Assembly: GCA_023259055.1 (NCBI GenBank)
Contig: JAHFQZ010000001.1
Coordinates: 248,001 to 312,000, forward strand
DNA length: 64,000 nucleotides
Reading direction: 5' to 3'
From: Nitrosomonadales bacterium
GTDB lineage: Bacteria > Pseudomonadota > Gammaproteobacteria > Burkholderiales > Gallionellaceae
Shown: positions 1 through 52,115 of the stretch, in pieces
Layout: each line of letters opens with the position of its first letter
Numbering within the stretch: position 1 is the stretch's first letter
The notes under the pieces: model-generated
Told to the model about the DNA's origin: nothing
The model's input: only the letters and a program-made list of their open reading frames with translations
Database searches by the model: none
Program-made: the position numbers and the translations under genes

Positions 1-1
1 G

Positions 2-619
2 CCACTGGTTATCAGCATGATTTATACCCACTGCCCAATTATCTGCACGGCTACTACGCGCAGCTTAAGCGCGCTGAAGTTGTCTCAAGATGCTTTGGGA
101 ACTGACAGCTTTGGTGTATTGACAGTCGGTTTTGATACTGAAAATGATACGCCGGAAGCGATGGGGGATTTTGCCAAACGAGTGGATGTAAATCTGCCCA
201 ACTGGAAATTCGTCAGCGCCGACCCGGATACGATTAAACATCTGAGCAAAGATTTAGGATTTGTTTTTTTTCCAACAGCCGAGGGTGGTTTCAATCACAT
301 CACGCAAACCACCTACATTGATGGACAGGGTAAGGTTTATCTCCATGTCTACGGGGATGAGCTTGATAACAAGACGCTGCTGCAGCCCTTGAAGGATATG
401 ATTTACAACATCAAGGTGGCAGAGCCGGGGCTTGCTGGCCTGTCAAATAAGGTGCGGCTCTTTTGTACCGTTTATGATGCAAAAACGGGAACATACAGGA
501 CAGATTATAGTTATTTTTATGGGATTGGCTTGGGCGTTCTTGTTTCATTGCTCATTACTTCATGGATTGTAATTGAATATCGCCGTAGCCCGAAACGTAA
601 CTACCCAAACCATGGTTAA
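2..619 (+). CDS. SCO1/SenC-family copper chaperone, 5' end cut by window
   Basis: The open frame runs in from the window edge, so the true start is outside; the first in-window ATG (17) lies inside the conserved core. The CPIIC motif just after it matches the CxxxC copper site of SCO proteins, and the distal His is in FNHITQTTYID. The fold is thioredoxin-like. The C-terminus adds a single membrane helix (GIGLGVLVSLLITSWIVIEY) and a basic tail, which is unusual since SCO proteins are usually anchored at the N-terminus. SCO/SenC proteins deliver copper to the CuA or CuB site of terminal oxidases. The next genes code for cytochrome b fusions and a heme-copper-oxidase-like subunit, so it probably serves that cluster. 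Confidence 0.88.
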   Translation, partial: PLVISMIYTHCPIICTATTRSLSALKLSQDALGTDSFGVLTVGFDTENDTPEAMGDFAKRVDVNLPNWKFVSADPDTIKHLSKDLGFVFFPTAEGGFNHITQTTYIDGQGKVYLHVYGDELDNKTLLQPLKDMIYNIKVAEPGLAGLSNKVRLFCTVYDAKTGTYRTDYSYFYGIGLGVLVSLLITSWIVIEYRRSPKRNYPNHG

Positions 620-682: not shown

Positions 683-2623
683 ATGATTAAACTCATGCAA
701 CGAATCGGGCAGAGTATTTTTTTGCGTCTTGAGAGCGCGCTCAATGGCATTTTTGGACCTGCATTGAATCCGTTTTATCAACTGGGCGCGATTGCCTATT
801 TGATGTTCTGGATCATCGTAGTAAGCGGTTTTTATATATATGCTTTTTACGATACCGGCGTGGAAGAAGCTTACAATTCGGTGGAGCGCCTAACCAACAA
901 TCAGTGGTATCTGGGCGGCATAATGCGCAGCCTGCATCGCTATGCTTCCGATGGAATGTTACTGGTTGGCGTTTTGCACATGCTGCGCAGCTTTGTCTTT
1001 GACCGCTTCCGAGACTTCCGGTGGTTTTCATGGTTTACGGGAGTCACATTACTGTGGCTGATTTATATTGCCGGTATAAACGGCTACTGGCTGGTTTGGG
1101 ATCGCCTGGCACAATTTCTTGCCGTTGCAAGCGCTGAATGGCTGGATTACCTGCCGATTTTTAGTGCTCCTTTGGCGCGCAATTTTTTGGAGCTGGGCAG
1201 CGTGAATGATCGCTTCTTTTCGCTACTTTCGTTAATTCATATTGGTGTTCCGCTGGGTGTTTTTGGGCTCATCTGGATTCACACCCAGCGCGTTCCGCAG
1301 GCCAAGACATCCACACCCAAACCGCTCACGATTGGATTGATCCTGTCGATGATCGCGCTTTCCTTGATTCATCCTGCATTGAGCCAGGGACATGGCGATC
1401 TGAATTCCGTGCCGTTTGTTCTGAACCTGGACTGGTTCTATTTGTGGGCATTCCCACTGCTTTATTCCTGGGGGGCGGCCAAGGTGTGGGCCTTGTCAGG
1501 GGGCTTTACCGTCCTGATCTTGTTGTTGCCATTCCTGGGACGATCCAAACGCGGCAGGGGTGAGTATGAGATTATCCCTTTCCCTTCAGGCCATGCGGTG
1601 ATTGCCCGAAGCGGCGAAACCATACTTGAGGCTGCGCTACGCCAAGGCATGGATATGCCTTATGTTTGCCGTGACGGAGCATGCGGCGTATGCAAGGGAA
1701 AAATATTGAAAGGCTCGGTCGACTATGGCATTTACCAGAAAGATGTGCTTACCGATGCAGAAAAAGCCGAGGGCAAGGCCCTGTTCTGCTGCGCCAAGCC
1801 GCTTTCTGATTTGGAAATAGAGAGCAATGAGGTCATCGGCCCAGGTCGATTCCCTGTAAGAACAATGAAGTTCAGGGTGAAGAAAATGGTACGGGCGGCG
1901 CCGGATGTGATGCTGCTTGAATTGCGCCCCGAAGGCGATGAACGGATGGATTTTGCTGCCGGCCAGTATATCGCCGTACATTTGGACGATGGCTCCAAAC
2001 GCAGTTATTCAATCGCCAACGCTCCGCATGAATTAGAACAATTGCAACTGCACATTCGCCTAGTGAAAGGTGGTAAATTCACCAGCCATGTTTTCACTGG
2101 AATGAGAGAAGGTGATACGCTGCAATTAGAAGGCCCTTTTGGCACATTTTCACTAGATGAAGAAAGCGACAAACCTATCATTTTCATGACGGGTGGATGT
2201 GGTTTCGGCTCCATCAAAAGCATGGTGGAGCATGCCTTTAAAATCGGTTTAAACCGCCCCATAATTTTATATTGGGGTGCCAGAACACCAGAGGATTTCT
2301 ATCTAGCGGATTTGCCGGAAAAATGGCAGCGGGAACATAATAATTTCAAATTCATACCGGTTCTTTCCGAACCAAAACCGGAACATCACTGGCTGGGCAG
2401 AACTGGCCTGGTTCATGAGGCCATACTGCAGGATTATCAACAACTGAATAACTATCAGGTGTATGCCTGCGGTTCACCCGAGATGGTCGAGGCAGGCCTC
2501 GCACCATTCATGGCAAAAGGATTGCCGGAAGACCAGTATTTTACTGACAAATTTTTGGTTGCTTGCCATATTGCGCCACAGGCAGAAGCGCGAGTATCCT
2601 CTAAAGAGGTGACACATGGTTAA
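683..2623 (+). CDS. Cytochrome b fused to [2Fe-2S] ferredoxin and FAD/NAD(P) reductase
   Basis: This 646-residue protein has three parts. Residues 1-285 are a cytochrome b with several membrane helices; the heme ligands appear as two His pairs, each spaced by 14 (HRYASDGMLLVGVLH, and a pair in the helix ending LIWIHTQR). Residues 295-385 are a plant-type ferredoxin with CRDGACGVC (C329, C334, C337) and a later Cys in the CCAKP region. Residues 390-640 are a ferredoxin-reductase module with the FAD motif RSYS (440-443) and nucleotide motif TGGCGFG (503-509). The arrangement suggests electron exchange between quinone and NAD(P)H across one chain, possibly as reverse electron flow; direction and pyridine nucleotide are inference. 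No cytochrome c1 or Rieske gene is adjacent. It overlaps the next gene by 8 bases and is paralogous to the gene at 4905. Confidence 0.88.
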   Translation: MIKLMQRIGQSIFLRLESALNGIFGPALNPFYQLGAIAYLMFWIIVVSGFYIYAFYDTGVEEAYNSVERLTNNQWYLGGIMRSLHRYASDGMLLVGVLHMLRSFVFDRFRDFRWFSWFTGVTLLWLIYIAGINGYWLVWDRLAQFLAVASAEWLDYLPIFSAPLARNFLELGSVNDRFFSLLSLIHIGVPLGVFGLIWIHTQRVPQAKTSTPKPLTIGLILSMIALSLIHPALSQGHGDLNSVPFVLNLDWFYLWAFPLLYSWGAAKVWALSGGFTVLILLLPFLGRSKRGRGEYEIIPFPSGHAVIARSGETILEAALRQGMDMPYVCRDGACGVCKGKILKGSVDYGIYQKDVLTDAEKAEGKALFCCAKPLSDLEIESNEVIGPGRFPVRTMKFRVKKMVRAAPDVMLLELRPEGDERMDFAAGQYIAVHLDDGSKRSYSIANAPHELEQLQLHIRLVKGGKFTSHVFTGMREGDTLQLEGPFGTFSLDEESDKPIIFMTGGCGFGSIKSMVEHAFKIGLNRPIILYWGARTPEDFYLADLPEKWQREHNNFKFIPVLSEPKPEHHWLGRTGLVHEAILQDYQQLNNYQVYACGSPEMVEAGLAPFMAKGLPEDQYFTDKFLVACHIAPQAEARVSSKEVTHG

Positions 2624-3143
2624 GCCATTACAATATATCGGCCAAGGCTTGTTTTACGCCCTGTTCATGGGTGTGATTGGCTATTACTCAACCTATCCGA
2701 AATATACTCACTTGCCGCCGGATGAAACATTGATCAAATTAAGCTTCAGGCATGCCGGACAGCACGTGGGCGAGTGTCGAGAGCGTTCTGCGGAAGAGTT
2801 GGCCGGACTGCCTGCATACCAGCGCAAAGGTGGAACTACGGTATGCCCGCGCGAGCGGGCAGATGTGGTGGTTGAGCTGGAAATGGACGGGAAGCAACTC
2901 TATCACGAGGTATTGAGGCCGACCGGATTGGCGCACAGCAGCAATTCAAATATTTACAGGCGCATCACGGTGAAGGCGGGGGTCCATACTTTGAAGGCTC
3001 GCCTGAAAGATCATCCAGGGGATGATTTCAACTATGTGCACGAGGAAACGATTACTCTTGCTCCAGGACGTATTATGGTAATTGATTTCAAGGCAGCGAC
3101 CGGCGGATTTATTTTCAAGAACAAAAATGCAACCCAAGGATAA
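2616..3143 (+). CDS. Membrane-anchored protein of unknown function in respiratory cluster
   Basis: I do not recognise a family for this 175-residue protein. One hydrophobic segment near residues 8-25 suggests an N-terminal anchor with the remainder outside the cytoplasm. The soluble part has two Cys (in GECRER and TVCPRE) that could form a disulfide, and ends in a beta-rich stretch. It starts inside the end of the cytochrome b-ferredoxin reductase gene (8-base overlap) and stops 4 bases before the GTG of the heme-copper-oxidase-like gene, so it is very likely co-translated with both. That suggests an accessory or assembly subunit of the same complex; this role is inferred from position only. 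Confidence 0.75.
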   Translation: MVKPLQYIGQGLFYALFMGVIGYYSTYPKYTHLPPDETLIKLSFRHAGQHVGECRERSAEELAGLPAYQRKGGTTVCPRERADVVVELEMDGKQLYHEVLRPTGLAHSSNSNIYRRITVKAGVHTLKARLKDHPGDDFNYVHEETITLAPGRIMVIDFKAATGGFIFKNKNATQG

Positions 3144-3147
3144 CAAA

Positions 3148-4560
3148 GTGAACTCAGCATATCAGCAGGCAAATGTCGAACAAGGCGCTGTGGTGACTGG
3201 CGTAGAAAAACGCGGGGGCGGATTCGCGCTTTCCATGCCGTCGGATGCCAACCGCAAACTGGCTTCCGGCTGGCTGAAACTTGGCATTGCATCACTGGTT
3301 GGCGCAGGGCTGTTCGCTATTCTCCTGGTTCTTTCGCGCACTCCTTATGTCCAGGATATTTTTCCCTGGGTTGATTTTTTCCACTCCGCCCTGGTGGTGC
3401 ACGTGGACTTGTCAGTGCTGTTATGGTTCATGGCTTTCGCCGGAGTACTGTGGAGCCTGAATTCAACGTCCAGACTCATCGGTGTCGGCTGGCTGGCTCT
3501 GGTGCTGGCTGCCGCGGGGGCTGCGATAATTGTGCTATCTCCATTTATCGCTGTCGGCAAACCCTTGATGAGCAATTATGTGCCGGTCATTCAAAGCACC
3601 TTCTTTTTTACTGGGTTGATTGTATTTGCCATTGGGGTTGCCCTGCTAGTGTTGCGCAGCCTTATAGCTGTGCCCCCAGCCGCATTGTGGCTGGGCGGTG
3701 AGGGTTCGATACGCATCGGTTTCTATGCCGCATCCATCTCTACGGTATTTGCCCTGATAGCTTTCGGCTGGTCATATGGCATTATTCCAGGCGACTTTGA
3801 AAGCACGCAGTACTTCGACCTCCTGTTCTGGGGCGGCGGCCATGTGCTTCAGTTTACCTATTCGCTGTTAATGCTGGCTGGCTGGCTGTGGCTGGCAGAT
3901 GCTTGTGGAGCGAAAATCCCGCTAAGCCCTCGAGTAGCGTCAATTTTACTAATACTGGGGCTAATACCAGTATTCTATGTCCCGGTCATTTACCTGTCAT
4001 ATGGCAACCTGTTGGGTGATTATATGGTGCAGTTCACCCAATTGATGAAAGTTGGAGGTGCCTTCGCGCCAGTTCCGCTCGGTTTGGCGGTGCTTTACGG
4101 GCTCGGCGCGGCAGGGAGCACACCGGCAACAAAACCGCAGCGTGCCGCACTGCTTTCTTCAATCATATTGTTTGCTGTCGGGGGAGGAATAAGCCTGGCG
4201 ATTGGAGAAAGCAACACAATCATCACCGCGCACTATCACGGAACCGGCGGTGCAATCAGCTTGGCCTTCATGGGATTGGCATTACATCTGCTGCCGCTCC
4301 TGGGCTACCGCGAGCCTGATTTGAAGTTGGCAACATTGATGCCATATATATACGGCGCGGGACAACTGCTCCACATTATCGGTTTGCTGTGGTCCGGCGG
4401 TTATGGCGTGCAACGCAAAGTCGCGGGGGCTGCGCAAGGACTGCATGGCTTTGCGCAGACGGCAGGCATGGGGTTGATGGGATTGGGCGGGCTGATAGCC
4501 GTTGTCGGCGGCATCATGTTCCTGCTAGTGGTTTATAAAGCCATGCGCCGGACAACGTAA
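3148..4560 (+). CDS. Heme-copper-oxidase-like subunit I lacking the helix VII His pair
   Basis: This 470-residue protein has about 12 hydrophobic helices and resembles subunit I of heme-copper oxidases and NO reductases. H85 in helix II and the HYH motif of helix X (H362, H364) fit the heme ligands, and H232 (GGGHVLQF, helix VI) fits one CuB ligand. No His occurs between H232 and H362, so the helix VII His-His pair of CuB is absent. It may bind hemes but not a classical CuB. The GTG at 3148 is chosen because AAGGA (3136-3140) sits 7 bases upstream; an in-frame ATG at 3127 lies inside the upstream gene and has a weaker site. No subunit II gene is visible in the window, though it could lie before position 1. 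The partial SCO gene fits a copper-oxidase setting. Confidence 0.8.
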   Translation: MNSAYQQANVEQGAVVTGVEKRGGGFALSMPSDANRKLASGWLKLGIASLVGAGLFAILLVLSRTPYVQDIFPWVDFFHSALVVHVDLSVLLWFMAFAGVLWSLNSTSRLIGVGWLALVLAAAGAAIIVLSPFIAVGKPLMSNYVPVIQSTFFFTGLIVFAIGVALLVLRSLIAVPPAALWLGGEGSIRIGFYAASISTVFALIAFGWSYGIIPGDFESTQYFDLLFWGGGHVLQFTYSLLMLAGWLWLADACGAKIPLSPRVASILLILGLIPVFYVPVIYLSYGNLLGDYMVQFTQLMKVGGAFAPVPLGLAVLYGLGAAGSTPATKPQRAALLSSIILFAVGGGISLAIGESNTIITAHYHGTGGAISLAFMGLALHLLPLLGYREPDLKLATLMPYIYGAGQLLHIIGLLWSGGYGVQRKVAGAAQGLHGFAQTAGMGLMGLGGLIAVVGGIMFLLVVYKAMRRTT

Positions 4561-4585
4561 GCCATCTTCTTAAAAATCCTTCTGT

Positions 4586-4789
4586 TTATTCAGGGGCAAG
4601 CACAAGAAACTTGATAAAGCCAAATGTTAGAAATGCCAGTACCAGAATAATCATAAAGAAAACCAGGCTGCGGACGCCGCGGTTTTGAAACCGTTCTCCG
4701 CGAGCAATCTCTATGCGATCAAGCAACCAGTCTGACATGAAGTAGAGGCCAGCAGCCACCAGAGTGTAATAAATAACTTCCAAGTTCAT
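4586..4789 (-). CDS. Small two-helix membrane protein
   Basis: This predicted 67-residue protein has two hydrophobic segments (VIYYTLVAAGLYFMSDWLL and SLVFFMIILVLAFLTFGFI) separated by a basic loop, suggesting a helical hairpin in the inner membrane. It lies on the opposite strand between the oxidase-like gene and the second cytochrome b gene. A GGAGA sequence directly abuts the ATG, which is too close for an ideal ribosome site; a TTG two codons later would have better spacing. Function is unknown. Its placement inside the respiratory cluster suggests a link but it is transcribed separately. Confidence 0.6.
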   Translation of the reverse strand: MNLEVIYYTLVAAGLYFMSDWLLDRIEIARGERFQNRGVRSLVFFMIILVLAFLTFGFIKFLVLAPE

Positions 4790-4904
4790 TCTCCATTAAT
4801 ATTTTACAACCTGCCCATTGTATTACGCTGCCGCGCTTTGAGCAGATGAATTTAACCGCATATTTTCAATATATATTGCGGACGGCATTGATGTAAGGAC
4901 TCCC

Positions 4905-6482
4905 TTGACTGCTTCCAATCACACAGATTCTGTTGCACGCAAAATTCTGCTCCGGTTTGAGGGCGTCTTGAATATTATCTTCGGCAATAAACTCAATCCT
5001 TTTTATTATCTGGGCGCGCTGGGGTTTTATTTTTTCTGGGTAGTTGCCGTTAGCGGAGCTTATCTTTATGCCTTTTATAAGACTGGCATAAAACTATCCT
5101 ATCCGTCCGTTGAATATATCACCAACGAACAATGGTATCTCGGCGGCATCATGCGCAGCGTGCACCGTTACGCTTCCGATGCGCTGGTGGTGGTATTGGC
5201 GCTGCACCTGTTGAGAGAGTTTATCCTGGGGCGCTATCGGGGGGCACGCTGGTTCGCATGGTTCACGGGTGTGCCGCTAATCTGGCTGATATTTGCCGCA
5301 GGTACCAATGGGTACTGGATGGTGTGGGATACGCTGGCCCAATATTCCACTGTGGCTTCCATGGAATGGCTCGACTGGTTACCGATATTCGGTGAACCAA
5401 TGTCGCAAAGTTTCATTTCCCAGGAAGTGCTCAATGACCGTTTCTTTTCGCTGATATCGTTTGCCCATGTGACCATCCCGCTGATAATTTTATTCCTTCT
5501 CTGGGTACACATCATGCGCATCAGCTACCCCGTGGTTAACCCAAGGCGTGGTCTTGCGCTGGGGATGCTGCTGGCAATGCTGGTTCTGGCACTGGTAAAG
5601 CCTGCATTGAGCCAAGGGCCAGCGGATATGGGGGTTGAGCCACACAACATCGGTATAGACTGGTTCTATTTGTTTATTCTGCCGTTGCTGGATAAATGGT
5701 CGGCAGGCCAAGTATGGGCTTTGGTCATCGGATTCAGCGTGCTGCTCAGTGTATTGCCATGGCTGCCGACCAGATTCAAGCAGATACCCATTGCCGAAGT
5801 AAGTCTCAAGGATTGCAGCGGATGTTGGCGTTGCGTTGCCGATTGCCCTTATGAAGCGGTGGTGATGCGGCCACGCAGCGACGGGATGCATTTCCCGGAA
5901 GAGGCCGTGGTCGTGCCGGATCGTTGTGTGAGTTGCGGTATTTGTACCGGGGCATGCCCCTCATCAACCCCTTTCAGGAGCGATTCCGGTTATGTAAGCG
6001 GAATCGAAATGCCATCCTTGCCGATATCCGGCCTTCGCGCTGCAATGATGAATGATCTGTCAACGCTCGAGGGCGATGCACGGGTCATCGTGATCGGCTG
6101 CGATAACGCGGCGGATATCAATAGATTGCGCTGCGATGACGTAGCAATAATGAGCCTGCCATGTGTAGCCATGTTGCCGCCATCTTTTATCGAGTATGCA
6201 CTTCGAGAGCGTCGGGCAGACGGAGTATTTATTACCGGCTGCCGTGAGGGCGACTGTTACCACCGTCTGGGCGGGTTATGGATGGAGCAACGCTTGGCTG
6301 GTGAACGGGAACCGCACCTGCGCATCAGCGTCAAGCGCAAGCGAATCCGGCTGTCTTGGGCATCTTCCGCAGACACCAAAGAATTAGTATTGGAATTAGA
6401 GGCATTTCGCTCCGATCTGCGTAGCTTGGACAAGAGTGAATATGTATCAAGAAGCGGGCTCAGTGATGAAGCGTCATTTTGA
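4905..6482 (+). CDS. Cytochrome b fused to two [4Fe-4S] sites and MvhD-like domain
   Basis: This 525-residue protein starts at TTG 4905, with AAGGA (4895-4899) 5 bases upstream. Residues 1-290 are a cytochrome b closely related to the one at 683, again with two His pairs spaced by 14 (HRYASDALVVVLALH, and a pair in the helix ending LLWVHIMRI). Two ferredoxin motifs follow: C304/C307/C310/C314 and C341/C344/C347/C351. Residues 393-485 resemble MvhD/FlpD, the iron-sulfur subunit of methanogen hydrogenase-heterodisulfide reductase complexes, with C399, C420, C446 and C451 (TGCREGDCYHRLGG). MvhD passes electrons to HdrA-type proteins, and no HdrA gene is seen here. The protein probably moves electrons between quinone and a cytoplasmic iron-sulfur partner; the partner is unknown. 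The fusion is unusual. Confidence 0.86.
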   Translation: MTASNHTDSVARKILLRFEGVLNIIFGNKLNPFYYLGALGFYFFWVVAVSGAYLYAFYKTGIKLSYPSVEYITNEQWYLGGIMRSVHRYASDALVVVLALHLLREFILGRYRGARWFAWFTGVPLIWLIFAAGTNGYWMVWDTLAQYSTVASMEWLDWLPIFGEPMSQSFISQEVLNDRFFSLISFAHVTIPLIILFLLWVHIMRISYPVVNPRRGLALGMLLAMLVLALVKPALSQGPADMGVEPHNIGIDWFYLFILPLLDKWSAGQVWALVIGFSVLLSVLPWLPTRFKQIPIAEVSLKDCSGCWRCVADCPYEAVVMRPRSDGMHFPEEAVVVPDRCVSCGICTGACPSSTPFRSDSGYVSGIEMPSLPISGLRAAMMNDLSTLEGDARVIVIGCDNAADINRLRCDDVAIMSLPCVAMLPPSFIEYALRERRADGVFITGCREGDCYHRLGGLWMEQRLAGEREPHLRISVKRKRIRLSWASSADTKELVLELEAFRSDLRSLDKSEYVSRSGLSDEASF

Positions 6483-49873: not shown

Positions 49874-51694
49874 TTATTGAAGAGTTGGGTTGCTTTCTAG
49901 GAAGCTCTTAATAAAGGTTGCTGCACGGGTTGCTGCAATTATTCTAAATTCATTTGAATAATCTTCTAATTCTTCTTTACCGAATCCAAAATCGCTAATA
50001 CCACGAATGGCCAAAAATTCTATAGAAGATTTCCTGTTTGCTAATGACATCGCAACACCAGCGGCTTCCATTTCACCACTTAAATGGTTTTCATTCCCGG
50101 AATCAAAAATTGACCTTTTCTTAATTTCATCAATAGATGCAATTACTACGTCATCAGAAACCATAGTTTTGCCAAGCTCTACATTTGGTTGCTCATTAAA
50201 TATGTGAGTTGGCACCCCGCATTTTATGACACAATTAATCTCTTCGAGAACTTTCCGCACTTTATCTTCTGAAACTTTGGGTTGTACACATTTAGCTAAT
50301 TTTTTCTTCCATTCAACAAATGGCGTCTTACCACCCCTTAGACCATCTTTATATTTTCTCACTTCATCAAATAGATGATTAGATTTTACGCGTGTATAAA
50401 TAGCCCTCTCTTTTCTGCCTGCCTTTCCATATTCCTTGGATGTCATTCCCCAATATACAATTGAATTAGTAATATGCAAATCACATAACTGTAACTTATT
50501 AGGATTTAATGTATACCCAATACCTGCCGAAATCACTGCCTTTGGATTAAGGTCTTCAATTGCAGCATTTGTAATTTGCGATGAATAAAAATTACCCATA
50601 TCTTCTCCGAAGGTCAATGCAATAGAAAATTCCTTATTGTCAGCCCGTACCGATGCAAAATAATACTCAGCAGTATATTTTTCTGAAAACCATCGATTCT
50701 TAACTTGAAGAACCTCACAAAATATCCTCAACTCAATCGGCAAGCCTGTAATTATTAAAATATCTATTGGTCTATTTTGGAATGGATTTATTTCGAGCAA
50801 TGGTATATTTGAAACACTTACTTGTACTTGTTCGGCTCGTTCAATACTGATTATTTCCTGTTTTGCCTTCTCAAATGCCTCAGGATCGTTAGACTCAATT
50901 GCTTTTTCTAGGGTTGTAATAGGTAGTACGCCAATGCGCGGTTCAATTTTAATTAATTCATCTTGTATGCTTTTTGCTTCTGCAAAAATCGGTGATTTGA
51001 TTATGTCCTGACGATTTAAATTGTCAGTTTTCCTTTCAATTCTTTGCAACTCTGATAAGTAAATCTTGCTTATTGGCGATAACGAAGTAACTGAAGATAC
51101 ATATGACTTAGTTGCTGGAGATAAACAGGAAATATCAATATTCTTAATAACTGAGGCGAATGATGATGCGTCAAGAGCTTTAGCTGCAGTAGTAAAAACA
51201 GAGGTATCAAATGCCTTGGCTGCAGTAGTTAGCGCAGAGGTATCGAAAGCTTTGGTAAGGGTAGTAAATACAGAGGTATCAAATGCCTTGGCTGCAGTAG
51301 TTAACGCAGAGGTATCAAACGCCTTGGCTGCAGTAGTAAACGCAGAGATATCAAGAGCCTTGGCTGCAGTAGTTAACGCAGAGGTGTCAAATGCCTTGGT
51401 TGCAGTTGTTAACGAAGAGGTATCAAGAGTTTTGGTTGTAGAAAGGAATATCGGAGTATCAAAGTTTGTTCGTTCTATTGCCACTCTCAAATTATTAAAA
51501 TATGGATCTTCGATAATTGAAATTAATTTTCTATTTCTGTCTTCAATCTCCTTTAGAGCGCTATTTGATAGATCAATGTCGTTTACTTTATTTGCGCCAT
51601 CAAGCACATCTACCAACTTTGCACTACTCCCAATAATCTCCTCTCTATTACGTTCTTTCTCCAGATAATCATTTAAGGTCAAATCTTTTTTCAT
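49874..51694 (-). CDS. 12-residue-repeat protein with nucleoside phosphorylase-like domain
   Basis: The 606-residue protein starts at 51694, with GGGAG five bases upstream. An N-terminal charged region (1-80) is followed by 9-10 tandem 12-residue units of the type TTAAKAFDTSAL (84-204), a helical linker, and a PNP/MTA-nucleosidase-like domain (about 309-604) with IITGLPIELR, SAGIGY, GEMEAAGVAMSLANR and AIRGISDFG. The conserved Glu and Asp of the active site appear intact. The gene is strikingly AT-rich and its codon use differs from its neighbours, which suggests transfer. PNP-fold domains serve as nucleotide-depleting effectors in several antiphage systems; a defence role is inference only. 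Confidence 0.8.
   Translation of the reverse strand: MKKDLTLNDYLEKERNREEIIGSSAKLVDVLDGANKVNDIDLSNSALKEIEDRNRKLISIIEDPYFNNLRVAIERTNFDTPIFLSTTKTLDTSSLTTATKAFDTSALTTAAKALDISAFTTAAKAFDTSALTTAAKAFDTSVFTTLTKAFDTSALTTAAKAFDTSVFTTAAKALDASSFASVIKNIDISCLSPATKSYVSSVTSLSPISKIYLSELQRIERKTDNLNRQDIIKSPIFAEAKSIQDELIKIEPRIGVLPITTLEKAIESNDPEAFEKAKQEIISIERAEQVQVSVSNIPLLEINPFQNRPIDILIITGLPIELRIFCEVLQVKNRWFSEKYTAEYYFASVRADNKEFSIALTFGEDMGNFYSSQITNAAIEDLNPKAVISAGIGYTLNPNKLQLCDLHITNSIVYWGMTSKEYGKAGRKERAIYTRVKSNHLFDEVRKYKDGLRGGKTPFVEWKKKLAKCVQPKVSEDKVRKVLEEINCVIKCGVPTHIFNEQPNVELGKTMVSDDVVIASIDEIKKRSIFDSGNENHLSGEMEAAGVAMSLANRKSSIEFLAIRGISDFGFGKEELEDYSNEFRIIAATRAATFIKSFLESNPTLQ
51158..51445. repeat. Tandem 36-base coding repeats
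   Basis: The region encodes eight well-kept 12-residue units with 36-base period within the gene 49874-51694; more degenerate units flank it. Short stretches such as GCCTTGGCTGCAGTAGT recur almost exactly. Recombination could change copy number in frame. Confidence 0.85.
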
Positions 51695-51885
51695 TTTCAC
51701 TCCCAGATTCAGTTGTCCCGATAAACGAGTTGGCATTATCAAATTTTATAGGGTATTCCCTTTTGGTTCTTCTTGCTTTAGCGTGAAGAAATCTCCCGTT
51801 CAAGTAATACGGAGCCTATAAATGCTTAAACCCGCAATCTAGCAGTAAAACAATTAAACGAGTCAAAGGGGTTCGAGCCAAAGGG

Positions 51886-51933
51886 ATCAGCATCGATTTT
51901 GAGTTTGACCAGACCAAACGTCAATCACGCTAG
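51886..51933 (+). pseudogene. Possible BrnT toxin N-terminal remnant
   Basis: The frame reads ISIDFEFDQTKRQSR and then stops; DFEFDxxKR is the usual start of BrnT RNase toxins. No start codon or rest of the gene is seen. The stop overlaps that of the antisense HicB-like gene. The similarity is short and may be chance. Confidence 0.25.
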
Positions 51934-52115
51934 CCGTCGGCAGGCCCGGGCAAGTCTTCGAAGTAAAGAGCCAGCGCCTCTTCCAGATTCGTTATAGCTT
52001 CTTGTTCGGTCGCACCGCTACACGCCAACCCAAGATCGGGACAGCGCGCGACGAAAACACCGTTTTCCTTGGCGACCACATAGTTCGAGTACTTCTTGCG
52101 TTTCCTGGTATTCAT
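51930..52115 (-). CDS. HicB-like antitoxin, orphan
   Basis: The 61-residue protein fits the small HicB/UPF0150 fold: YVVAKENGVFVARCPDLGLACSGATEQEAITNLEEAL. No HicA toxin gene (dsRBD-like, with a conserved His) is visible on either side, and no DNA-binding domain is fused. It could be a solitary regulator or leftover antitoxin. Repeat block B (52130-52203) serves as its upstream region. Confidence 0.8.
   Translation of the reverse strand: MNTRKRKKYSNYVVAKENGVFVARCPDLGLACSGATEQEAITNLEEALALYFEDLPGPADG

What the first reader, a model, noticed from the sequence alone, without database searches (positions are those of the whole stretch)
683..6482. Twin cytochrome b cluster with two different iron-sulfur fusions
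Two paralogous cytochromes b with intact bis-His heme sites flank a membrane protein and an oxidase-like gene. One is fused to a ferredoxin and an NAD(P)H reductase, the other to two [4Fe-4S] sites and an MvhD-like domain. There is no Rieske or cytochrome c1 gene. The whole could link the quinone pool to NAD(P)H and to a low-potential partner, perhaps by confurcation or reverse electron flow in a chemolithotroph. bc complexes with NAD(P) oxidoreductase subunits are reported in anammox bacteria, but this two-fusion layout is new to me.
Basis: partly seen in the sequence, partly recalled or inferred. Interest (0 to 1): 0.85.

Follow-up and report, generated by a model that had tools for sequence, protein, structure and literature searches.

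The report
Cytochrome b partners of nitric-oxide reductase
Two unusual membrane proteins, each joining a haem-carrying cytochrome b to a different iron-sulfur tail inside the cell, turn out to go with a little-studied nitric-oxide reductase, and may tie nitric-oxide breathing to the cell's supply of reducing power.

Summary
Observation confirmed. Two intact cytochromes b lie at 683-2623 (fused to a plant-type [2Fe-2S] ferredoxin and an FAD/NAD reductase) and 4905-6482 (fused to two [4Fe-4S] sites and an MvhD domain). Heme and cluster ligands are invariant in aligned relatives; no Rieske or cytochrome c1 gene is present. In the window's family 33 of 33 eNOR genomes carry the FNR fusion and 32 of 33 a nitrite reductase; in 398 sampled Pseudomonadota 29 of 30 eNOR genomes carry the MvhD fusion, 12 of these on another contig. 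The 'oxidase-like' gene is an eNOR-subunit-I paralogue without two CuB histidines; the small membrane protein is an Ig-like subunit, fused to the cytochrome b in one relative. A tree derives the FNR form once from the MvhD form. Best reading: a Rieske-less, probably (hetero)dimeric cytochrome b complex serving eNOR, exchanging electrons between quinol and NAD(P)/low-potential carriers; NO-driven bifurcation and NADH-driven NO reduction both remain open. I found no description of it in the papers searched.

The parts
1..619 (+). SCO1/SenC-type copper assembly protein, 3' part; the gene starts about 350 bases before the window (L039:17654-18619)
   Evidence: Pfam SCO1-SenC E 2.1e-14 on the whole protein
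683..2623 (+). Cytochrome b fused to [2Fe-2S] ferredoxin and FAD/NAD reductase (646 aa; 'CBFNR')
   Evidence: full-length relatives 57-85% identical
683..1552 (+). cytochrome b domain of CBFNR: heme ligands H85/H99 and H186/H200, Qo-type motif LDWFY; helix count and cytoplasmic side of the tail are inferred by eye, not computed
1586..1801 (+). plant-type [2Fe-2S] domain, C329 C334 C337 C369 invariant
   Evidence: Fer2 E 1.8e-15; 12 of 12 rows aligned
1874..2494 (+). FAD- and NAD(P)-binding reductase domains; best NCBIfam relative BenC (below its cut-off); a 54% identical stand-alone homologue lies at G000:C4:605400-606374
2616..3143 (+). 175-aa protein: N-terminal helix plus Ig-like beta sandwich (periplasmic side inferred); H46 invariant, C54/C77 near-invariant; fused to the MvhD-type cytochrome b in L038
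3127..4560 (+). Paralogue of eNOR subunit I (heme-copper oxidase fold) keeping heme ligands H92, H369, H371 and one CuB-type His (H239) but lacking the helix-VII His-His pair (no His at all between residues 240 and 368)
4586..4789 (-). 67-aa membrane protein with relatives in 27 of 33 loci, here on the opposite strand
4905..6482 (+). Cytochrome b fused to two [4Fe-4S] sites and an MvhD domain (525 aa; 'CBMVHD')
4905..5774 (+). cytochrome b domain of CBMVHD: H87/H101 and H188/H202, Qo-type motif IDWFY
5811..5966 (+). two [4Fe-4S] sites (C304 C307 C310 C314; C341 C344 C347 C351)
   Evidence: 20 of 20 rows aligned
6108..6428 (+). MvhD/FlpD domain (C399 C420 C446 C451, presumably [2Fe-2S])
   Evidence: Pfam FlpD E 1e-14; 20 of 20 rows aligned

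Best explanation
The cluster is the electron-transfer half of an eNOR (nitric-oxide reductase) operon. SHOWN by sequence: the operon runs CuA-like subunit II, catalytic subunit I with the eNOR Gln, heme-O synthase, SCO1, CBFNR, Ig-like subunit, subunit-I paralogue, CBMVHD; the cytochromes b keep both heme pairs and an acidic Qo-type motif but have no Rieske or cytochrome c1 beside them; eNOR and these cytochromes b occur together even when unlinked. INFERRED: the two cytochromes b form one heterodimer (cytochromes b of bc complexes are dimers, recalled) with the Ig-like subunit beside eNOR. INFERRED mechanism, my first choice: quinol is oxidised at the periplasmic Qo-like site; one electron goes downhill to NO through the CuA domain of eNOR in place of a Rieske protein, the other goes through the two hemes to the cytosolic tails, where the FNR half reduces NAD(P)+ and the [4Fe-4S]/MvhD half reduces a lower-potential partner. 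NO reduction (about +1.2 V, recalled) would pay for reducing power. Odds: role as eNOR partner about 0.9; this direction rather than the reverse about 0.45.
For: eNOR identity: subunit I aligns with ba3 oxidases, metal His kept, cross-linked Tyr replaced by Gln (HPIVY to HSSQQ), in 18 of 18 rows aligned (17 of 26 held plus a plasmid row); Gln is the published eNOR signature and subunit II carries a cupredoxin (PMC8756737, passages). Partnership: in 158 genomes of the window's family 33 of 33 eNOR genomes have CBFNR (31 whole in one frame, G043 split, G086 partial with two stops); 4 more have CBFNR without a detected eNOR. In 398 Pseudomonadota 29 of 30 eNOR genomes have CBMVHD; the exception is an eNOR contig that ends just after SCO1. 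It holds without linkage: 12 of 29 on different contigs, three of these with no eNOR in the 19 kb fetched around the cytochrome b (L074, L075, L078); the genome of L019 carries eNOR on another contig. NO context: 32 of 33 eNOR genomes have nirS-like or nirK genes against 30 of 125 others; nirS-like genes lie in the same stretch in 15 of 85 loci, nosR in L024. Complex: Ig-like subunit fused to CBMVHD in L038. Twin cytochromes b arose at least twice. The invariant acid of the Qo-type motif and the tails make sense for quinol oxidation at the periplasmic side, which towards NAD+ is possible only with a downhill branch (inference). An analogous NAD(P)H-making proposal exists for anammox Rieske/cytochrome b complexes (PMC12954380, passages).
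Against: No biochemistry; direction is not readable from sequence. I know of no protein that replaces the Rieske protein as first acceptor at a Qo site; CuA in that role is a guess, and the Ig-like subunit shows no cofactor site. The FNR half is closest to BenC/MmoC-type reductases, which normally spend NADH (recalled). Subunit II's COX2 match is below the Pfam cut-off (16.9 vs 22 bits); CuA rests on the motif by eye. The MvhD partner is unknown: the HdrA of this genome is in only 16 of 33 eNOR genomes. A carrier such as the Defluviimonas plasmid may need NO-driven NADH less. G020 (71% complete) has the cytochrome b cluster without eNOR beside it or detected elsewhere; the genome of L010 (1.6 Mb) gave no eNOR; five of 34 CBMVHD genomes in the phylum sample gave none. 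Most loci show no nir gene nearby. Nothing shows that the two cytochromes b meet each other or eNOR.
Confidence: 0.45

Rival explanations
1. Reverse direction: NADH (through the FNR half) and a low-potential cytosolic donor (through MvhD) feed electrons into the hemes b and on to eNOR, giving NADH-linked nitric-oxide removal that bypasses quinone and cytochrome c.
For: FNR half resembles NADH-oxidising oxygenase reductases (BenC E 2e-54, MmoC 1.3e-50, both below cut-off) and has a 54% identical stand-alone homologue in the genome. Presence in different lineages suits NO detoxification. NO is toxic and these genomes can make it (nirS-like or nirK in 32 of 33).
Against: An autotrophic iron oxidiser pays dearly for NADH, while electrons for eNOR should be available as reduced cytochrome c through CuA (inference). 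A conserved acidic Qo-type motif is not needed for this route.
Confidence: 0.33
2. The cytochromes b are plain NAD(P)H:quinone and low-potential-donor:quinone oxidoreductases that merely share regulation with eNOR.
For: Both halves have the cofactor sites needed for cytosol-to-quinone transfer; eNOR has its own CuA entry point.
Against: Near-complete co-occurrence with eNOR, also unlinked, is stronger than shared regulation would ask for; NADH dehydrogenases already do this job (recalled).
Confidence: 0.13
3. One reading: confurcation or reverse electron flow specific to chemolithotrophic iron oxidation, not tied to nitric oxide.
For: Many carriers are titled Gallionella, Ferrigenium or Zetaproteobacteria MAGs.
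Against: Found in only 37 of 158 genomes of the same family, in all 33 with eNOR, and enriched with nitrite reductase; also in loci not named as iron oxidisers.
Confidence: 0.05
4. The two fusions are assembly or frameshift artefacts.
For: CBFNR is split in L019/G043 (apparently one genome, by the eNOR position) and has two stops in G086, as draft errors do.
Against: CBFNR is whole in 34 of the 37 family genomes that hold it and in 21 public loci.
Confidence: 0.01

Closest known systems
eNOR-type nitric-oxide reductase (PMC8756737; reported in Gallionellaceae PMC10734462 and Zetaproteobacteria PMC8114936; passages only)
   Same: The operon's subunits I and II carry the eNOR signature; lineages agree
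   Different: The passages seen describe subunits I and II only; cytochrome b, iron-sulfur, Ig-like and subunit-I-paralogue partners are not mentioned there
Kuenenia (anammox) Rieske/cytochrome b complexes with NAD(P) oxidoreductase, Kustd1480-1485 and Kuste4569-4574 (PMC12954380, passages)
   Same: b6-like cytochrome b, cytosolic NAD(P) oxidoreductase, proposed quinol bifurcation with an N-oxide as downhill acceptor
   Different: Here no Rieske and no multiheme cytochrome c; tails are fused to the cytochrome b; a second cytochrome b has [4Fe-4S]/MvhD; partner is a heme-copper NO reductase
Cytochrome bc1 / b6f cytochrome b (PDB 6rqf and 1vf5 among the best matches)
   Same: Heme b core with both His pairs
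   Different: Short C-terminal part, xDW[FY] instead of PEWY, no Rieske, no cytochrome c1/f
MvhD/HdrA heterodisulfide-reductase systems (PDB 5odc, 9sw2, 8rvu)
   Same: MvhD domain with four invariant Cys next to a dicluster ferredoxin, as at the C-terminus of HdrA2
   Different: No HdrA flavin domain; MvhD is attached to a membrane cytochrome b
B-type heme-copper oxidases and sNOR/CuA-NOR (1xme, 7deg; PMC3475470, PMC6967387, passages)
   Same: CoxA/CoxB-type subunits and gene set (short helix peptides, SCO/SenC)
   Different: Gln, not Tyr (oxidase) or Asn (sNOR, CuA-NOR), in the active site; no cytochrome b fusion is mentioned in the passages seen

Membership tests
eNOR nitric-oxide reductase (operon's CoxA/CoxB) | Heme-copper subunit I with all heme and CuB histidines | tested here: met
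   Alignment to ba3 oxidases; H71, H233, H282, H283, H387, H389 invariant in 18 rows
eNOR nitric-oxide reductase (operon's CoxA/CoxB) | Active-site Gln in place of the cross-linked Tyr | tested here: met
   HPIVY to HSSQQ; Q237 in 18 of 18 rows; criterion from PMC8756737 passages
eNOR nitric-oxide reductase (operon's CoxA/CoxB) | Adjacent cupredoxin (CuA) subunit II | tested here: inconclusive
   CGEYCGGVNQLGHHTM motif seen by eye in L039:14135-14692; COX2 16.9 bits under the 22-bit cut-off; NCBIfam CoxB E 8e-7 under cut-off
eNOR nitric-oxide reductase (operon's CoxA/CoxB) | Placement with reference eNORs in a tree | not tested
   No reference eNOR sequence was at hand
eNOR nitric-oxide reductase (operon's CoxA/CoxB) | NO reductase activity | not testable with these tools
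   -
Rieske/cytochrome b (bc1, b6f) complex | Two bis-His hemes b | tested here: met
   4 of 4 His in 20 and 12 rows
Rieske/cytochrome b (bc1, b6f) complex | PEWY-type Qo motif | tested here: inconclusive
   Variant xDW[FY] with invariant Asp
Rieske/cytochrome b (bc1, b6f) complex | Rieske protein and cytochrome c1/f in the cluster | tested here: not met
   No Rieske motif in cytochrome b loci (own bc1 Rieske found as control); no CXXCH in seven operon protein families
Anammox-type Rieske/b complex with NAD(P) oxidoreductase | NAD(P) oxidoreductase with the cytochrome b | tested here: met
   Fused FAD/NAD domains
Anammox-type Rieske/b complex with NAD(P) oxidoreductase | Rieske protein and multiheme cytochrome c subunits | tested here: not met
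HdrA/MvhD heterodisulfide-reductase system | HdrA flavin-containing subunit with MvhD | tested here: not met
   None in the operon; a separate HdrA-MvhD cluster (L040) has its HdrA in 16 of 33 eNOR genomes
Catalytic heme-copper oxidase/NOR (the 3127-4560 protein) | Three CuB/FeB histidines | tested here: not met
   Only the helix-VI His kept; no His between residues 240 and 368 in the window protein, none invariant there in 28 rows
Catalytic heme-copper oxidase/NOR (the 3127-4560 protein) | Heme-copper oxidase fold and heme ligands | tested here: met

The most novel reading that the evidence does not exclude
A Rieske-free, heterodimeric cytochrome b complex that uses nitric-oxide reduction by eNOR as the downhill branch of quinol bifurcation, and so makes NAD(P)H and lower-potential electrons for CO2 fixation: a second, independent solution to the problem for which the anammox NAD(P)-linked Rieske/cytochrome b complexes are proposed.
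Probability: 0.35. Interest if true: 0.92.

Novelty: new variant of a known kind. Interest (0 to 1): 0.72.

Why it matters
eNOR is described as a two-subunit enzyme (PMC8756737, passages); here it goes, in nearly every eNOR-carrying Pseudomonadota genome sampled, with a cytochrome b that reaches to NAD(P)H or lower-potential carriers. If the two work together, NO reduction to N2O is linked to reducing power, which would change energy budgets for nitrate-reducing iron oxidisers and other carriers. It also touches an open question: PMC12622760 (passages) says that 'Ca. Ferrigenium straubiae' lacks a canonical nor gene and likely leans on partners to remove NO, yet a MAG of that name (L008) carries this whole eNOR operon. 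That strain is deposited (DSM 118991, KCTC 25982, as given in that paper), so the idea is directly testable.

Tried and rejected

Counting notes. In one search the match list was cut, so weak or fragmentary CBFNR copies may be missed and 37 is a lower bound; the 37 include partial G029 and G086 and split G043. 'nirS-like' means a Cytochrom_D1 match (PF02239), which may include d1-heme relatives of NirS; nirK was counted in 19 genomes, 18 over the cut-off and G015 just under it. Fisher tests ignore kinship. The tree used 39 rows chosen by me; its outgroup rows are very long, so the root, and with it 'MvhD form first', is unsure.

Literature searches for a description of the cytochrome b/eNOR pairing: (open-licence PMC only); none of the listings or passages seen described it. 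The main eNOR paper (Murali et al., PNAS 2024, title and journal recalled; named as the source of a Nor database in PMC12569097) is not held and was not read, so it may mention these partners.
Full report
WHAT IS THERE. Both fusion proteins are intact. The FNR-type protein (683-2623) has a cytochrome b core, a plant-type [2Fe-2S] domain and FAD/NAD domains closest to oxygenase reductases such as BenC, below that model's cut-off. The MvhD-type protein (4905-6482) has a cytochrome b core, two [4Fe-4S] sites and an MvhD domain. The cores are 52% identical to each other. Between them lie a 175-aa protein whose reading frame overlaps the ends of both neighbours (seen directly), an oxidase-like gene, and a 67-aa membrane protein on the other strand.

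WHERE IT SITS. Subunit I matches Thermus and Aquifex ba3 oxidases (E about 1e-52) with the metal-binding His kept but the cross-linked Tyr replaced by Gln (HPIVY to HSSQQ). That is the published eNOR signature (Table A4 of PMC8756737, passages; PMC3475470, passages, gives the wider rule for NORs). In this genome the search with the COX1 family found one other protein, which by its CcoO- and CcoP-like neighbours (by eye) is a cbb3 oxidase, so eNOR is the only NO-reductase candidate of this superfamily found. It also has a nirS-like gene (C3:223189-224367), heme-A synthase and RuBisCO.

HOW CONSERVED. One scan of named genomes gave 33 loci. In 19 of 33 the whole order CoxB-CoxA-CtaB-SCO-CBFNR-Ig-like-paralogue-CBMVHD is kept; 24 of 33 hold both cytochrome b types, 2 of 33 (Zetaproteobacteria) hold two MvhD-type copies, 7 of 33 hold one MvhD-type copy only (several are cut by contig ends). 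In 158 genomes of the window's family, eNOR was found in 33, CBFNR in at least 37 (34 whole, G029 and G086 partial, G043 split), the paralogue at 57% identity or more in 37; no eNOR genome lacks CBFNR. Of the four with CBFNR but no eNOR found, G054, G029 and G079 are cut by contig ends; G020 (71% complete) has unrelated genes where eNOR would stand. In 398 Pseudomonadota genomes, CBMVHD was found in 34 and eNOR in 30, 29 shared. The single eNOR-only genome, G226, has a contig ending just after SCO1; the five CBMVHD-only genomes are 69 to 96% complete. In 12 of the 29 the two lie on different contigs, and in L074, L075 and L078 no eNOR lies in the 19 kb fetched around the cytochrome b. The genomes of L019 and L035, whose cytochrome b loci lack eNOR, carry it on other contigs (L035's genome appears to be G191, already counted); that of L010 (1.6 Mb) gave none.

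NITRIC-OXIDE CONTEXT. Among the 158 family genomes, 32 of 33 with eNOR have nirS-like or nirK genes, against 30 of 125 without (Fisher p 4e-15, uncorrected for kinship). nirS-like genes lie in the same fetched stretch as the cytochrome b or eNOR genes in 15 of 85 loci: L011, L016, L024, L035, L063, L074-L081, L084 and L085 (L078 holds the same stretch as L035, and L076/L077 are one genome; many of the others are too short to show it; six of these proteins were checked with Pfam Cytochrom_D1). L024 also has nosR-like and apbE-like genes (below cut-offs).

HISTORY. In a tree of 39 cytochrome b cores the 12 FNR-type rows are one clade (100/98) nested in the MvhD-type rows, which are not one clade; the two Zetaproteobacterial copies are a separate duplication (97/96). 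So the MvhD form with eNOR looks older, the FNR tail was swapped in once, and twinning happened at least twice. The two outgroup rows, L038 and L043 are long, and some inner branches are weak, so the root is unsure.

MECHANISM. Shown: cofactor sites, gene association, absence of Rieske and c1 beside it. Inferred: a (hetero)dimer with tails on the cytosolic side. Two directions are possible. Quinol oxidation at the Qo-like site with NO as downhill acceptor could push the second electron to NAD(P)+ or below; the invariant acid in the xDW[FY] motif and the tails favour it, and the anammox proposal is a precedent (PMC12954380, passages). The reverse, NADH feeding eNOR, fits the kinship of the FNR half with NADH-spending reductases. 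I lean slightly to the first.

COMPARISON WITH PRINT. eNOR in Gallionellaceae and Zetaproteobacteria is already reported (PMC10734462; PMC8114936; passages). Papers on iron- and manganese-oxidiser electron chains that I looked into (PMC4643136, PMC8788666, PMC9040806, passages) do not mention this cytochrome b module in the passages seen. The 2025 isolation paper for 'Ca. F. straubiae' (PMC12622760, passages) says a canonical nor gene is lacking; the MAG titled 'Ca. F. straubiae KS03' has the entire operon, its subunit I 91% identical to the window genome's. The word 'canonical' leaves room for eNOR, and the pangenome paper counts eNOR in 4 of 6 narGH genomes without naming them in the passage seen.

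VERDICT. Observation confirmed; interpretation partly supported and redirected. The pairing with eNOR is well supported; the electron-flow direction is not settled.

Noticed in passing
   Followed up: partly
L040 (G000:C9:306000-322000): By best NCBIfam matches (mostly below cut-offs): HdrBC, 2-oxoacid:ferredoxin oxidoreductase, HdrA2-like, MvhD and sulfhydrogenase-like beta/gamma genes in one cluster, in a genome that also has RuBisCO; a possible low-potential partner system.
   Followed up: partly
L008, L012: MAGs titled Ca. Ferrigenium straubiae KS03 and Ca. F. bremense BP06 carry the full eNOR operon. L012's accession prefix JAGRPI is cited in PMC12622760 for strain KS.
   Followed up: partly
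L038:7738-9801: Deltaproteobacterial fusion of the MvhD-type cytochrome b with the Ig-like subunit.
   Followed up: yes
L043 (NZ_CP156080.1): A Defluviimonas plasmid carries CoxB-CoxA-cyoE-SCO-CBMVHD-Ig-like and a bacteriohemerythrin gene: the module is on a plasmid in Rhodobacterales.
   Followed up: partly
L039:13437-13520: Two near-identical copies of about 38 bases in tandem upstream of the operon (seen by eye).
   Followed up: no
L006: A MAG labelled Polaromonas carries a Gallionellaceae-type copy of the whole operon; mislabelled bin or transfer.
   Followed up: no
window:49874-51736: A 620-aa gene with a C-terminal phosphorylase-superfamily domain (PF01048) in the window's lowest-GC stretch (37.7%, 50001-52000).
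   Followed up: no
L086:5433-6419: Heme-A synthase in a genome whose only heme-copper enzymes found are cbb3-like and eNOR, suggesting heme A or O in eNOR.
   Followed up: no
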